Of a stretch of 64,000 nucleotides of DNA, positions 17,545 to 22,319 are shown piece by piece. Position 1 is the first letter of the stretch, and each line of letters begins with the position of its first letter. Where the stretch lies: the NCBI GenBank assembly GCA_001683845.1, contig LXQI01000002.1, positions 1-64,000 of the forward strand, read 5' to 3'. Origin of the DNA: Erythrobacter sp. ANT-B3C2 (GTDB lineage Bacteria; Pseudomonadota; Alphaproteobacteria; Sphingomonadales; Sphingomonadaceae). The position numbers were made by a program, and so were the translations under genes. Under the pieces are notes generated by a model. It did no database searches. It was not told the origin of the DNA and was given only the letters and a program-made list of their open reading frames with translations.

Positions 17545-18354
17545 TTAATGGGGGGCTGTTGGCTGGGTAATCAGGCAGCTGCCGCCGGGTGCGAAGATCA
17601 CGTCTTCGATCGAGGCGGCGAGTGCGCAGCCGCCCGGCGCCACCCCTTCGCTGCCGACCCACGCCTCGCCCTCGCGCGGGATCACCAGCAGCGCACCATG
17701 GTAGCGAGCGGCGGTTTGCGCATCGGGCAGGCCGTCGATCCGGTCGAGCTGGAAATAGGGTCCGTTGACCAGATGCAGGTTCCCCCGATCGGGCAGGTGA
17801 AGGCGGCAGGCGGGGTCGTGCGGCACGCCTTTTGCAACTGCGATGGCCTGCTCCAGGTGCAGTTCGCGTGGGCGGCCGTAATCGTACAGGCGGTAGGTGA
17901 TGTCCGAGTTCTGCTGAATCTCGATGATCGAGCAGCCACCGCCGATCGCGTGCACGGTGTTCGCCGGGATGTAGAAGAAATCGCCCGCTCTCACCGGATG
18001 CCATACGAGCAGATCCTCGATGCTCCCGTTGAGCGCGGCGGCGCGCATCGCGTTGGCATCGATGGGTTCGGCGAAGCCGATGCCGAGCGAGGCACCCGGC
18101 TCGGCGTCGATCACCAGCCAGCATTCCTCCTTGCCCTGTCGTCCGAGCCCTTCGGCCTCGGTCTGCGCGTCGGACGGGTGGACTTGGACCGAAAGTTTTT
18201 CGCTGGTGAAGATGTACTTGACCAGCAGCTGCGGCAGGTCCTGCGGCGGCTCGAACCAGATCTCGCCGATCCGCTTGTCTGCCGGTGTTTCGAAGGGTGC
18301 GGGGAGGCGATCGGCGCCCCAGGGCTTCTCGACAGTCCGGGTGGTCAGCAGCAT
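17545..18354 (-). CDS. manA: Mannose-6-phosphate isomerase (class I, cupin)
   Basis: 269 residues. Zinc-site motifs are VQVHPSDAQ (about residue 57), GKEECWLVI (about 74) and YIPANTVHAIGGG (about 129), with the remaining cupin strands following (YRLYDYGR). It interconverts mannose-6-phosphate and fructose-6-phosphate in the cytosol. It is the last gene of a three-gene minus-strand operon after a GT4 glycosyltransferase and a GH130 phosphorylase. That context suggests it links mannose phosphate from phosphorolysis to glycolysis, or supplies mannose for synthesis. Confidence 0.88.
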   Translation of the reverse strand: MLLTTRTVEKPWGADRLPAPFETPADKRIGEIWFEPPQDLPQLLVKYIFTSEKLSVQVHPSDAQTEAEGLGRQGKEECWLVIDAEPGASLGIGFAEPIDANAMRAAALNGSIEDLLVWHPVRAGDFFYIPANTVHAIGGGCSIIEIQQNSDITYRLYDYGRPRELHLEQAIAVAKGVPHDPACRLHLPDRGNLHLVNGPYFQLDRIDGLPDAQTAARYHGALLVIPREGEAWVGSEGVAPGGCALAASIEDVIFAPGGSCLITQPTAPH

Positions 18355-18366
18355 CGAGTGTTCCCG

Positions 18367-19677
18367 TCAGCGCAGCGTATCGAGCAGCGCGTTGATTTCC
18401 ACGGTGGCGAAACCCACCGCACTGTCTGAAATTCCATAAGGAACCAGCAGCCGCCCGCCAACCTTCAGCACGCCGCAAGTGTAGACCACGTTGGGCACGT
18501 AGCCCTGCCGGTCGGCGTCCACCGCGGTGAGCACCGGCTCGATGCTGCGGGCGATCACCTTGGTGGGATCGTCGCGGTCGAGCAGTGCGCAGCCCAGACT
18601 GTACTTGCGCATCGCCCCCACGCCGTGGGTGAACAGCAGCCAGCCCTTGTCTGTCAGTACCGGGCTGCCGCAATTGCCGACCTGGATGAACTCCCAGGGG
18701 TATTTCGGCTCCATCAGCAACACACCCTCGTCATCCCACCGGTCGATCCGGTCGGACTGGAGGAGGAACAGGTTCTTGCCGTCCTGCCGGCTCACCATGG
18801 TGTAGCGGCCGCCGACTTTTTCCGGGAACAACGCCATGCCCTTGTTGCGGCCCGCCTGGCCCTCGATCGGCTCCAGCAGGAAGCGGCGGAAATCGCAGGT
18901 GCGCAGCAGTTCGGAGCGGATCGTGTGGCCCGAGAAGGCGGTGTAGGTGCCGATCCATTCGTAATCGCCGCCGCCATGGTCGAAGCGCACCATGCGCAGG
19001 TCTTCCAGGCCGTTGCGCTGTTGTTCGGTGATCGGGAAGATGACGGTGTTCGAAAGGCTGCTGTCCAAGTGGCGGTGCACGGTAACGCCGGCATCGCTAT
19101 CCGACAGGCTGGCATCGTCAAGTTCGACCGAGGTGGCAAAGGCGTTCTGCGGCCAGAGGGTAAAGCTGCCCTCGTCATCGGCGATGCCTTCACGGAACGC
19201 GATCGAGCTGATGTGCCCTTCGCCCACCGCGCGCAGTGTCATCACGAAGCGGCAGGCGCCTTCGCTCATGCCGCTCTGGTCAGGGTGCGGCACGATCGAG
19301 GGGTTCATCAGCGCCGCCGCGGCATAGGTGTATTCGTGGCAGAAGAAGGCACCGATCAACCGCGTGCGGGTTTCCGACAGGCCCTCGGTATCGAGCGACA
19401 GCGTCGTCCTCACCTCCTCGAAGCGCTGCTCGAACATCTGCTCGGTTTGCCAGTGGCGCTCCGCGAAATCGCGCCGCACGCGGGCATATTCAGCCTCCAC
19501 TTGCTGCTCGCTCAGTGCGAGCACGTCCTCCACCAGCCGGTTCGCACGCCCTCCGGGCGCGTTCTCGGCCGACCAGCCGAGATGGAACGGCCGCAGCACC
19601 ACGCGCGATGGATCGGCATGCAGCCGTTCATCGAGTATCCGCAGCGGACTGTCCGACCAAGCGCCCTCGACCCCCAA
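18367..19677 (-). CDS. GH130-family mannoside phosphorylase
   Basis: 436 residues. The protein shows a five-bladed propeller pattern typical of GH130: DPSRVVLRPFHLG near the N-terminus, MNPSIVPHPDQ, EDLRMVRFDHGGGDYEWIGTYTA (about 225) and the late GNCGSPVLTDKGWLLFTHGVG segment. GH130 enzymes cleave beta-mannosides with inorganic phosphate, giving mannose-1-phosphate. The start is a TTG with GGGAG six bases upstream, placed 50 bases inside the end of the GT4 gene; no later ATG fits. Acceptor and linkage cannot be read from sequence. Confidence 0.82.
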   Translation of the reverse strand: MGVEGAWSDSPLRILDERLHADPSRVVLRPFHLGWSAENAPGGRANRLVEDVLALSEQQVEAEYARVRRDFAERHWQTEQMFEQRFEEVRTTLSLDTEGLSETRTRLIGAFFCHEYTYAAAALMNPSIVPHPDQSGMSEGACRFVMTLRAVGEGHISSIAFREGIADDEGSFTLWPQNAFATSVELDDASLSDSDAGVTVHRHLDSSLSNTVIFPITEQQRNGLEDLRMVRFDHGGGDYEWIGTYTAFSGHTIRSELLRTCDFRRFLLEPIEGQAGRNKGMALFPEKVGGRYTMVSRQDGKNLFLLQSDRIDRWDDEGVLLMEPKYPWEFIQVGNCGSPVLTDKGWLLFTHGVGAMRKYSLGCALLDRDDPTKVIARSIEPVLTAVDADRQGYVPNVVYTCGVLKVGGRLLVPYGISDSAVGFATVEINALLDTLR

Positions 19678-21991
19678 TGTGCTCTCCCGTCGAATCGCGC
19701 GACCGTGCGCCGGCGAGCGCTAGCATGGAATAGTAAGCAAGTTGCAAAGCGAGGATCGACTCTGCACCGCAATTCTCGTTAGCGCCACGCGGGGTGATTC
19801 CGTCGCGGCAGCGGCCGGTGGCGAGATCTCCCAGCACCACGCCGCGATCGTTGGCGCCGAAGAACCAGTTCCAGGCGCATTTCGCATGGGCGAGCCAGCG
19901 CTCGTCGCCCGTGGCGGCATAGGCCGAGCGGGCCGCTTCGATGGCGGCCTGCACTTCGAGCGGCTGCTGATCGAACGGCAGGTGCGCATGCTCCTGGCCG
20001 AAGCTGTCGGAACCGATCGGGCGAAAATGCCCGCTGGCGGCGACCTGCTGGCCCGCGATCCATTCGAGCGTCTCAAGCCCCGCGGCGGTGAACTCCTCGC
20101 GCTCGAGCGCCTGCCCCGCCTCGATCAGCGCCTGCGAGAGGCGGGGATTGTCATAGCCGAGCACCGCCTCGAACCACGCCCAGTCCGGCCGCCGCGCCCC
20201 GCCGAGCAGCCGGTGGAGCACGTCCGCGCCGTGTTCGAGCGCCATGCGCGAAGAAGCATGGCCCGGCTCGGCGCGCAGCATGGCGGCAGCGCCCAGCATG
20301 GTGAAGGCGATTGCCCGGGGGGACCCGAGCTCAAGACAGGCGGGCAGCGCCTTATCATACCATTGCCGCGCCCAGCGTTGGATGCCGGAGCTCGGCGCGA
20401 ACTCCACCGTATGCCCGAGCGCCCACAGCGCGCGACCGTTGGAATCATCCGAGCCCAGCTCTTCGCACCAAGCCCGGTCGAAGGCCATGAAGTTGCGGAA
20501 GCCCCGCCGCTCATCGTTCCAGGCGTGCTGGACGAAACTGGCGTAGATGAGCGACCAGCGCTCGCGCTCGCCATCCGAAAGCCCGGTGGCGACATTCATC
20601 AGCATCAGCGCGCGGGCGTTGTCGTCCAGACAATAGCCATGGTTCCGGTCGGGTACGATGCCGACCGAATGCTGCAGGATGCCGGTCGCGTCGCCGATCT
20701 GGAACACCGCCGTAAGGCCGGGCGTGGCGGTCAGCGGTGCGCGGGGGGCAGGCGGCGCCACCGCAGCCTCGATCAGCGCGGCGGCCCCATCGGCGAAGCG
20801 CGGCCAGATCGTCTTGCGGCCGCGGGCATAGGCGCGCCGTTGTAATTCGCCCAACTCCTCGGGGTGGTCGAGTAGACGGATCACCGCCTCGGCAATGGCC
20901 GCGGGCTCGTTGGGCGGGATCAGCACTCCTGCACCATCCGCCAACAATTCGCGCGCATGGAGGTACGGGGTGGCGACCACCGCCTTGCCCAGCGCCACCG
21001 CATAGCTGAGCGTGCCCGAGGTCGATTGCTGGAGGTTGCGATAGGGCGTGAGGTAAATGTCGCAGGCCTCGATCTGGTCGAGCAGTTCGTCGTTCTTGAG
21101 GAAGCGATTGTCCCACAGGATGTGGTCGGCCACCCCCAGCGCCTCGGCCTTGGCCATCAACCGTTCGCGATAAGCTTCGCCCTCGCGCGCCAGCAGATTG
21201 GGGTGTGTCGAGCCCACGATCCGGTACACCGCATTGGGATGCCGCGCGACGATCTGGGGCAGCGCCTCGATCACGGCCTGCAGCCCCTTGCCGGGCCCGA
21301 GCAGGCCGAAGGTCATCATCACTCGCCGGCCTTCCAGCCCTAGCAGCCGGCGGAAGCGCTCGCCGCGGCCGAACGGCCGATCGGGAGCGCCATGCGACAC
21401 CACCTGGAGGATGCTATCGGGTGCGCCGTAACGCTCGCTCAGCAGCCGGCGCGAATGCTGGCTCATCACCATGATCCGGCTGGCCCGCTGGACCAGATGT
21501 TCGAGGATCGTGCGCTGGCGGGGCGAGGGCTCGTTGAGGATGGTGTGCGGGGTGAGGATCAGCGGGGCGGCCAGCCGGTCAACCAGGTGGCACACGAGTT
21601 CGCCATCGGGTCCGCCGAAAATGCCATATTCGTGCTGCAGCCAGACCGCATCGACGCCGCTCTCGTTGATCCGGCGAGCGGCCTCTTCGTAGGAGCGGGA
21701 GTCGCCTACGGCGATCGTGCCAGCGATGCCCTCGTAGGCTTGGGGGTCGGCCGTGTCGTCGAGCGCATACACGTCCACCGTGATCTGCGGGTGAAACCGT
21801 GCGAGCTGCTCGGCAGTGTCGCCGGTGAACGTGGCGATGCCGCATTTGCGCGGCGTGAATGTTCCGATCAGCGCGACGCGGCGGATCGGCCGCGCCACGT
21901 TCTGCTGCCAGCTGACGATCGGGCGCAGGTCGAGAACGGACGAATCATCCGTTTCGCTCCTGTCCGCGCTCGCAACACCCTCGACGTCCAT
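19628..21991 (-). CDS. Two-domain GT4 glycosyltransferase with C-terminal alpha/alpha-barrel
   Basis: 787 residues, about twice the usual GT4 length. Residues about 38-400 are a GT-B fold (RRVALIGTFTPRKCGIATFTGD at the start; DGAGVLIPPNEPAAIAEAVI as the nucleotide-sugar site). Residues about 425-760 have repeated helices with conserved aromatics (DRNHGYCLDDNARALMLM, FRNFMAFDRAWCEELGSDDSNGRALWALG, HFRPIGSDSFG), like (alpha/alpha)6 glycoside-processing domains. GGAGGA precedes the ATG by six bases. It heads the operon with GH130 and ManA and is probably a mannosyltransferase; donor and product are unknown. Confidence 0.82.
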   Translation of the reverse strand: MDVEGVASADRSETDDSSVLDLRPIVSWQQNVARPIRRVALIGTFTPRKCGIATFTGDTAEQLARFHPQITVDVYALDDTADPQAYEGIAGTIAVGDSRSYEEAARRINESGVDAVWLQHEYGIFGGPDGELVCHLVDRLAAPLILTPHTILNEPSPRQRTILEHLVQRASRIMVMSQHSRRLLSERYGAPDSILQVVSHGAPDRPFGRGERFRRLLGLEGRRVMMTFGLLGPGKGLQAVIEALPQIVARHPNAVYRIVGSTHPNLLAREGEAYRERLMAKAEALGVADHILWDNRFLKNDELLDQIEACDIYLTPYRNLQQSTSGTLSYAVALGKAVVATPYLHARELLADGAGVLIPPNEPAAIAEAVIRLLDHPEELGELQRRAYARGRKTIWPRFADGAAALIEAAVAPPAPRAPLTATPGLTAVFQIGDATGILQHSVGIVPDRNHGYCLDDNARALMLMNVATGLSDGERERWSLIYASFVQHAWNDERRGFRNFMAFDRAWCEELGSDDSNGRALWALGHTVEFAPSSGIQRWARQWYDKALPACLELGSPRAIAFTMLGAAAMLRAEPGHASSRMALEHGADVLHRLLGGARRPDWAWFEAVLGYDNPRLSQALIEAGQALEREEFTAAGLETLEWIAGQQVAASGHFRPIGSDSFGQEHAHLPFDQQPLEVQAAIEAARSAYAATGDERWLAHAKCAWNWFFGANDRGVVLGDLATGRCRDGITPRGANENCGAESILALQLAYYSMLALAGARSRDSTGEHIGGRGRLVGQSAADTR

Positions 21992-22187: not shown

Positions 22188-22319
22188 CTCACCGGATAAA
22201 CTGCCATTGACTGGGCCAGTTCCCGGAAGCGCTGCCGACCTGACCGCTCCGATTGCGATGGTGCAGCGCAAGAGAACCGACTCGACGCAGCCTCTCTGCC
22301 TGCCTAGACCGCCGGCCCG

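What the first reader, a model, noticed from the sequence alone, without database searches (positions are those of the whole stretch)
18354..21991. GT4 (two-domain)-GH130-ManA operon: possible synthesis and phosphorolytic recycling of a mannoside
Seen: a 787-residue GT4 with a C-terminal alpha/alpha-barrel domain, a GH130 gene starting with TTG 50 bases inside it, and manA 12 bases later. Known: GH130 enzymes are phosphorylases of beta-mannosides giving mannose-1-phosphate; ManA links mannose-6-phosphate to glycolysis. Inference: the GT4 builds an oligomannoside (possibly a storage or compatible solute) and GH130 returns it to metabolism, like a small glycogen cycle. The barrel fused to GT4 may trim or measure the product.
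Basis: partly seen in the sequence, partly recalled or inferred. Interest (0 to 1): 0.7.

Follow-up and report, generated by a model that had tools for sequence, protein, structure and literature searches.

The report
Stress-linked mannose-sugar gene module
Three neighbouring genes (a two-part sugar-transferring enzyme, a mannoside-handling enzyme and a mannose-6-phosphate isomerase) belong to a conserved, sometimes plasmid-borne bacterial module that probably makes and turns over an unknown mannose-containing molecule, in this group of bacteria probably under general-stress control.

Summary
In detail: a 787-residue GT4 protein with a C-terminal barrel, a TTG-started GH130 gene overlapping it by 50 bases, and manA 12 bases on. 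GT4-barrel and GH130 are a real linked pair: adjacent in 80 of 80 close relatives, and strong matches to both fall in the same 13 of 118 order genomes. A ManC-like gene lies near GH130 in 31 of 80 loci, and three conjugative plasmids carry manC-manA-GT4-GH130-phosphomannomutase. The cassette is wired to mannose-1-phosphate and GDP-mannose.

GT4 enzymes are retaining (alpha products); GH130 acts on beta-mannosides, so they cannot simply reverse each other. All 89 long GH130s aligned carry Gln332 where four solved relatives have Lys/Arg, so phosphorolysis is unproven. The GT4 motif E-x7-E is replaced by Q-x7-Y.

New here: a published general-stress promoter motif lies upstream of GT4 in 24 of 94 distinct upstreams versus 6 of 374 controls: the window and 23 of 66 close relatives, but 0 of 27 more distant copies. 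Likely role: an intracellular mannoside, stress-linked in this clade. Product and direction unknown.

The parts
20756..21991 (-). GT4 (GT-B) domain, residues 1-412
   Evidence: Pfam PF00534, PF13692, PF13439 above cut-off; E-x7-E replaced by Q322-x7-Y330
19631..20749 (-). C-terminal (alpha/alpha) barrel domain of the same protein, residues 415-787; no Pfam family found
   Evidence: no Pfam hit up to E 10; model pLDDT 86.6; best structural match 7tem Z 34.3, then GH9-type, GH76 and 2-epimerase folds at Z 25-28
18367..19677 (-). GH130 five-bladed propeller protein with a helical insert near its N-terminus; TTG start; overlaps the GT4 gene by 50 bases
   Evidence: PF04041 89.1 bits, cut-off 26; model vs 5b0p Z 33.0; active-site column counts; conserved non-ATG start
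17545..18354 (-). Short class I mannose-6-phosphate isomerase-like protein (ManA)
   Evidence: TIGR00218 63.1 bits, below cut-off 116.2; relatives annotated class I PMI
22199..22223 (-). Candidate EcfG (general stress response) promoter GGAAC-N17-GTT, 232 bases upstream of the GT4 start
   Evidence: sequence; motif test; published motif in PMC6599016
19628..19677 (-). 50-base overlap of the GT4 3' end and the GH130 5' end; falls in a low-confidence C-terminal tail of the GT4 protein

Best explanation
A cytoplasmic mannoside synthesis and turnover module, stress-linked in this clade. Inferred steps: ManA (with phosphomannomutase and ManC, encoded elsewhere in this genome and within the cassette in some relatives) supplies mannose-1-phosphate and GDP-mannose; the GT4 domain transfers mannose (expected alpha) to an unknown acceptor; its fused (alpha/alpha) barrel processes or binds that glycan; the GH130 propeller makes or breaks beta-mannosyl (probably beta-1,2) bonds on the same glycan, sharing mannose-1-phosphate or GDP-mannose with the rest of the pathway. 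Shown: gene structure, tight co-inheritance, mannose-pathway neighbours, folds, conserved active-site residues, enriched stress-promoter motif in close relatives. Not shown: product, donor, direction of GH130, barrel activity, expression.
For: GT4-barrel upstream of GH130 in 80 of 80 loci. Strong matches to both in the same 13 of 118 order genomes; all 16 phylum-sample genomes (of 349) with a full long GH130 carry the barrel. ManC-like gene in 31 and ManA-like in 39 of 80 loci; manC-manA-GT4-GH130-PMM on three plasmids (mutase confirmed by Pfam for one); changed gene orders keep the association. manC, two phosphomannomutase-type genes and NepR in the own genome. No membrane-spanning stretch in the three proteins. 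GH130 D226, N125, D418 and K279 in 89 of 89. EcfG motif 24 of 94 vs 6 of 374, p 3e-13. GT4 + GH130 + manC precedent with two assayed beta-1,2-mannoside phosphorylases in Thermoanaerobacter (PMC4264767, passages).
Against: Gln332 replaces a Lys/Arg of solved relatives; the GT4 lacks E-x7-E, so neither activity is certain. Only 39 of 80 loci carry ManA and 31 ManC. The promoter motif is confined to the close relatives: 0 of 27 distinct upstreams of more distant copies (other genomes and plasmids), and none in L070-L082; the pair in the S. melonis-like genome has none upstream. Promoters of genes preceding GT4 in those operons were not tested. Stress genes also occur in 1 of 3 control plasmid regions. 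The window's motif is 232 bases from the start; in S. melonis such motifs are enriched within 100.
Confidence: 0.42

Rival explanations
1. Salvage, not storage: GH130 phosphorolyses beta-mannosides to mannose-1-phosphate, which ManC turns into GDP-mannose for the GT4, as proposed for Thermoanaerobacter.
For: Same gene set (GH130, mannose-1-phosphate guanylyltransferase, GT4) and explicit proposal in PMC4264767 (passages); ManC-like gene in 31 of 80 loci.
Against: The Thermoanaerobacter cluster also has an ABC transporter and a GH5 enzyme; I recognised no sugar importer among the recurrent neighbour clusters that I looked at (12 of the 37 listed clusters other than GT4, GH130 and ManA, by NCBIfam or by eye), apart from a TonB-family gene in 29 loci and, by eye, a TonB-dependent receptor in 4 and an oligopeptide-transporter-like gene in 12. 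Gln332 weakens the phosphorylase reading.
Confidence: 0.25
2. Envelope glycan assembly: the GT4 adds mannose to a lipid-linked or envelope glycan and GH130 trims or edits it.
For: GT4 enzymes often act in polysaccharide and glycolipid assembly (established knowledge); solved GT4 matches include phosphatidylinositol mannosyltransferases.
Against: No flippase, polymerase or export gene was recognised among the recurrent clusters looked at or in the product names beside the pair on 16 plasmids, though many neighbours are unidentified; all three proteins lack membrane segments.
Confidence: 0.15
3. One reading: the GT4 builds an oligomannoside that GH130 phosphorolyses back to mannose-1-phosphate.
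For: Gene linkage and mannose context.
Against: Opposite stereochemistry of the two families (GT4 retaining: established knowledge; GH130 inverting on beta-mannosides: PMC8950772, passages); altered phosphate-site residue.
Confidence: 0.08

Closest known systems
Thermoanaerobacter sp. X514 Teth514_1786-1789 cluster (GT4, mannose-1-phosphate guanylyltransferase, two GH130 beta-1,2-mannoside phosphorylases; PMC4264767, passages)
   Same: GT4 + GH130 + ManC side by side; GH130s share the beta-1,2 lysine and catalytic residues
   Different: Here one long GH130 with a helical insert and Gln332, a GT4 fused to a barrel, ManA added, no ABC transporter or GH5 seen beside it; whether Teth514_1786 has a barrel was not checked
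Leishmania mannogen cycle, GT108 mannosyltransferase/phosphorylases
   Same: Five-bladed propeller fold and beta-1,2-mannan used as energy store (PMC8950772, passages); structural match to MPT-4 Z 20.9
   Different: The window protein is far closer to GH130 (5b0p Z 33.0); no GT4 partner is known to me for the mannogen enzymes (recalled)
Uhgb_MS 'mannoside synthase' (PDB 9eqq/9erg/9erh) and Lin0857 (5b0p)
   Same: Among the nearest GH130 structures
   Different: They have Arg at the Gln332 position; they are 350-363 residues long against 436 here
Yersinia protein YPO2471 (PDB 7tem, putative exported protein)
   Same: Best fold and sequence relative of the barrel (E 9.8e-11; Z 34.3)
   Different: 427-residue chain without a GT4 domain; function not stated in the entry title
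S. melonis Fr1 EcfG regulon genes #1750/#1751 (PMC6599016, passages and Table 1)
   Same: EcfG-dependent GT4; its likely orthologue in an S. melonis-like genome is 57-61% identical to the partner GT4 of four-gene GH130 clusters
   Different: A different GT4 beside a GH13-type enzyme, not this pair

Membership tests
GH130 | PF04041 profile above curated cut-off | tested here: met
   89.1 bits vs 26
GH130 | Five-bladed propeller closest to solved GH130 enzymes | tested here: met
   5b0p Z 33.0, rmsd 2.2, 284 aligned
GH130 | Catalytic Asp and -1 subsite Asn/Asp (Teth514_1788 Asn28, Asp92, Asp281; PMC4264767) | tested here: met
   N125, D226, D418 in 89 of 89 long sequences; D226 and D418 align with the four solved chains' segments; N125 only with the other unsolved homologues, because those segments start after it
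[quoted passage not shown]
   K279 in 89 of 89 and Lys in all four solved chains aligned; equivalence to Lys199 inferred from motif position, BT3780 itself was not aligned residue by residue
GH130 beta-1,2-mannoside phosphorylase | Basic residues that bind phosphate (three, PMC4599007 section 20) | tested here: not met
   Position Q332: Gln in 89 of 89; R/K/R/R in 9fj8, 7fip, 5b0p, 9eqq. R297 and H351 kept. That this position binds phosphate (Lys212 of Uhgb_MP) is recalled; the mapping uses the alignment printed and assumes a 20-residue tag
GT4 | GT4 Pfam profiles above cut-off | tested here: met
   PF00534 68.8, PF13692 64.6, PF13439 31.0 bits
GT4 | E-x7-E motif (recalled as typical of the family) | tested here: not met
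   Q322 and Y330 at least 97% conserved in 94 aligned sequences; they stand opposite two Glu of 3c4q
Class I mannose-6-phosphate isomerase | TIGR00218 cut-off | tested here: inconclusive
   63.1 bits vs 116.2
N-acylglucosamine / cellobiose 2-epimerase (barrel domain) | PF07221 profile | tested here: not met
   no Pfam hit up to E 10; neighbouring Rhizobium epimerase scores 177.8 bits as positive control
GH76 alpha-mannanase (barrel domain) | Fold and catalytic Asp pair | tested here: inconclusive
   Z 27.0 to 4v1r, no Pfam hit; no residue-level structural alignment available
GT108 mannogen enzymes | GDP-mannose-dependent beta-mannosyl transfer | not testable with these tools
   needs assay; fold similarity Z 20.9 only

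The most novel reading that the evidence does not exclude
A bacterial mannogen-like system: the long GH130 subfamily, having swapped a phosphate-site base for Gln332, works mainly as a beta-mannosyl synthase or transferase (using GDP-mannose or mannose-1-phosphate), and together with the GT4-barrel protein builds a mixed alpha/beta intracellular mannan as a general-stress reserve or protectant that spreads on plasmids.
Probability: 0.2. Interest if true: 0.82.

Novelty: new variant of a known kind. Interest (0 to 1): 0.56.

Why it matters
If right, many environmental alphaproteobacteria (and, by plasmid, a fusobacterium) carry an overlooked mannose-based counterpart of trehalose or glycogen metabolism, in one clade tied to the general stress response. 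The subfamily with Gln332 would also show how a propeller phosphorylase changes chemistry, and the barrel domain without a Pfam family would gain a function. It gives a small, testable gene set for an unknown metabolite.

Tried and rejected
Idea that S. melonis Fr1 genes #1750/#1751 (EcfG-dependent, PMC6599016) are this pair: tested by searching one of their published 25-base promoters in 295 genomes of the genus (1 genome, 1 mismatch) and reading the locus. There the gene behind the #1751 promoter is a GH13-type enzyme and the gene behind the #1750 promoter (exact match) a different GT4, so rejected (GH13 and GT4 named by eye from the sequences). In the same genome the real pair lies elsewhere and has no EcfG motif upstream; about 0.5 kb beyond its GH130 gene lies a sequence identical to the promoter published for EcfG-dependent #1930.

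Barrel as a 2-epimerase or mannose isomerase: rejected on profile, though the fold is alike. GH76 membership left open. No GT108, GH9 or GH76 sequence relation appeared in the Pfam scans; absence there proves nothing.

Stress-gene neighbourhood as independent proof: weakened. Chaperone, Usp or Dps genes stand within 9-11 kb in 7 of 16 plasmid neighbourhoods (positive; 49, 50, 52, 58-62, 69 negative), but by shared neighbours these look like two island lineages, and 1 of 3 control regions also has two Hsp20 genes (none). One control region by chance held a second GT4-GH130 pair.

Stress promoter as a property of the whole family: not borne out. A per-locus recount on checking this report shows the 24 hits are the window and 23 of 66 distinct close-relative upstreams; 0 of 27 distant ones.

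Papers: no paper on this cassette was seen in searches (listings); most subscription journals and all supplementary tables were out of reach, so this is not proof that none exists.
Full report
OBSERVATION. The minus strand of the window carries three tightly packed genes: GT4 with a C-terminal extension (19628-21991, 787 aa), GH130 (18367-19677, 436 aa, TTG) and a short ManA (17545-18354, 269 aa). The 50-base overlap and the 12-base gap are exact. The six close relatives checked start GH130 with GTG (3) or TTG (3) at the same point after a GGAG-like site. Upstream, on the other strand, are a TauE-type gene and an FtsH-type gene; downstream, on the other strand, Tad-type genes. I saw no reason to include them.

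CONSERVATION OF THE PAIR. A scan of public genome contigs with the GH130 protein gave 147 relatives, of which the best 80 were kept. By record title nearly all are Sphingomonadales; two carry Acidobacteria-type MAG names (L030, L039) and two only broad names (L024, L080). In 80 of 80 the barrel part of the GT4 lies directly upstream of GH130 (in L023 and L029 the contig ends inside the GT4 gene). These 80 were selected by similarity to GH130, and some are near-identical. A sample not chosen by the gene is stronger. Of 118 genomes of the order, 18 have any GH130 match and 19 any barrel match at E 0.001; 13 have a strong long-GH130 match (E 2.4e-115 or better) and the same 13 have a strong barrel match (E 1.5e-74 or better). 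Four more have a weaker barrel match (E 2.6e-33 to 4.0e-62): in three (G027, G086, G095) a shorter GH130 lies beside it on the same contig, in one (G048) no GH130 was found. Two (G078, G109) have only marginal barrel matches, and one (G063) has a GH130 match without a barrel match. In 349 genomes of the phylum (34 with any GH130 match, 18 with a barrel match), 16 have the full long GH130 and all 16 have the barrel; one more (G231) has a fragment of a long GH130 at a contig end and no barrel found; two (G242, G249) have the barrel without a long GH130. So the pair is inherited largely as a unit, with patchy distribution.

MANNOSE-PATHWAY NEIGHBOURS. Clustering of predicted genes in the 80 loci found a ManA-like gene in 39 and, in 31, a gene of about 346 residues downstream of GH130; a representative of the latter matches the guanylyltransferase part of TIGR01479 (345.4 bits, below the fusion model's cut-off of 372.95). 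Elsewhere the order changes but partners stay: manA-GT4-GH130 in four of five other alphaproteobacterial genomes read and on Sinorhizobium and Devosia plasmids, manC-GH130-GT4 in G016. Three conjugative Sphingobium/Sphingomonas plasmids carry manC-manA-GT4-GH130-phosphomannomutase (the mutase confirmed by Pfam for the first). Of 16 plasmid neighbourhoods read (of 27 records with a barrel match), 14 have an annotated GH130 next door; the exceptions are a stand-alone barrel gene in Croceicoccus and a Deinococcus pair of GT4 genes. Nine of the 14 have manA, manC or the mutase in the same run. Two Rhizobium plasmids instead have an N-acylglucosamine 2-epimerase family gene (Pfam for one). In the window's own genome ManC (63% identical to the L033 operon ManC) and two phosphomannomutase-type genes lie elsewhere. 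No GDP-mannose dehydratase exceeds its cut-off. A second architecture, GT4 - short GH130 - long GH130 - GT4-barrel, occurs in an Ilyobacter plasmid and in a distant proteobacterial genome, where the first GT4 is fused to a mannose-6-phosphate isomerase cupin.

THE GH130 PROTEIN. It is a GH130 by profile and fold: the model (pLDDT 83.4) matches 5b0p at Z 33.0, rmsd 2.2, 284 aligned residues, and the GT108 enzyme MPT-4 at only Z 20.9. I aligned 89 long GH130s: the window, 56 close relatives and 32 distant ones found at E 1e-60 or better, among them a few paralogues without a barrel gene beside them (L117, L119, L120); anything weaker was left out of this count. N125, R149, D226, K279, R297, H351, Y359 and D418 are invariant in 89 of 89. 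The catalytic and -1 subsite residues named in PMC4264767 (passages) and the beta-1,2 lysine named in PMC4599007 (passages and sections 19-20) are thus in place. But residue 332 is Gln in 89 of 89, where 9fj8, 7fip, 5b0p and 9eqq have R, K, R, R, and six of eight other, shorter or different GH130 sequences aligned have K or R (E and L in two of the three domains from L134). In the alignment printed the same column is Lys in Uhgb_MP, index 232, which I take to be Lys212 after a 20-residue tag; that Lys212 binds phosphate is my recollection. Phosphorolysis is therefore plausible but unproven, and synthesis or transfer is possible. A helical insert (about residues 44-111 in the model) accounts for part of the extra length over the solved enzymes.

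THE GT4-BARREL PROTEIN. The N-terminal half is GT4. In 94 aligned homologues Q322 and Y330 are at least 97% conserved; in the printed alignment to 3c4q they stand opposite two Glu of its motif. The C-terminal 373 residues have no Pfam hit, are confidently modelled (pLDDT 86.6) and form an (alpha/alpha) barrel: 7tem Z 34.3 with 334 aligned, then GH9-type, GH76 and 2-epimerase folds at Z 25-28. A profile of 61 sequences finds 7tem by sequence too (E 9.8e-11). Many polar and acidic residues are invariant in the 61 sequences (D20, D42, D43, D102, E194, D260, E265, E330 among others), which suggests a working site. The domain also occurs alone, and a GT4 without it occurs in the same locus as a paralogous GH130 (L119).

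WHY THE SIMPLE CYCLE FAILS. GT4 is a retaining family (established knowledge), so GDP-alpha-mannose should give alpha-mannosides. GH130 is inverting and acts on beta-mannosides, exchanging them with alpha-mannose-1-phosphate (PMC8950772, passages). The two enzymes cannot be forward and reverse of one bond. They may act on the same glycan in different bonds.

STRESS LINK. PMC6599016 (passages and Table 1) gives the S. melonis EcfG motif GGAAC-N17-20-GTT, enriched within 100 bases of the start; PMC7083833 (passages) gives GGAAC-N16-CGTT with a flexible -10 box. A first scan with GGAAC-N16/17-CGTT found 12 of 112 GT4 upstream segments against a shuffle mean of 0.55 (maximum 3 in 200) and 1 on the reverse strand. 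After dropping 18 near-duplicates, the published motif lies 20-260 bases upstream in 24 of 94 GT4 upstreams and 6 of 374 control ORF upstreams (p 3e-13; 18 vs 4 within 120 bases, p 2.5e-10; the stricter CGTT form 10 vs 4, p 3.5e-5; reverse strand 1 of 94). The 24 are the window and 23 of 66 distinct upstreams among the close relatives L003-L082, from which the controls also come; 0 of 27 distinct upstreams of more distant copies have it. In several of those copies manC or manA precedes GT4, so the operon promoter may lie farther up; that was not tested. Controls are longest-ORF predictions, some surely not genes, and related species are not independent, so p-values are optimistic. The window has the motif at 22199-22223, and five of eight near relatives examined have one at -192 to -233 (one at -329, two none). 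The NepR anti-sigma family of this response is in the genome. The published EcfG-dependent glycosyltransferase #1750 is a different GT4, and the pair in the S. melonis-like genome has no motif upstream.

VERDICT. A real, conserved, partly plasmid-borne module of mannose metabolism, with an enriched general-stress promoter motif in the window's clade; closest precedent the Thermoanaerobacter GH130-ManC-GT4 cluster. It differs by the barrel fusion, the Gln332 subfamily and the added ManA. The product is unknown. I rate it a new variant of a known kind.

Noticed in passing
G000 contig C42 about 243629-244387 (L002; L171 7618-8742): A second, different GH130 gene in the own genome sits, by eye, within a histidine operon (between hisH-like and hisA-like genes); 58% identical to a GH130 upstream of the GH13-GT4 pair in an S. 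melonis-like genome.
   Followed up: partly
G000 contig C14 (L170 5427-7987): GH13-type enzyme and a GT4 (77% identical to the S. melonis-like type whose Fr1 counterpart is EcfG-dependent) as a tight pair; homologues of this GT4 are the partner GT4 in four-gene GH130 clusters of Ilyobacter and a distant proteobacterium.
   Followed up: partly
L142 6285-12011: Ilyobacter polytropus (Fusobacteriota) conjugative plasmid carries GT4 - GH130 - GH130 - GT4-barrel, a cross-phylum occurrence of the module.
   Followed up: partly
L146 8974-10017: Stand-alone copy of the barrel domain (about 37% identity) on a Croceicoccus plasmid among heavy-metal ATPases and a YccA gene.
   Followed up: no
L134 6362-10086: A protein with two tandem GH130 domains next to one with a single C-terminal GH130 domain; two of the three domains have altered active-site residues.
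   Followed up: no
L039: GT4 and GH130 ORFs each split in two, suggesting frameshifts or assembly errors.
   Followed up: no
L154 17829-22004: Second GT4-GH130 pair on the S. sanxanigenens plasmid, near Crp/Fnr regulators, acetate kinase and transketolase; found by chance in a control region.
   Followed up: no
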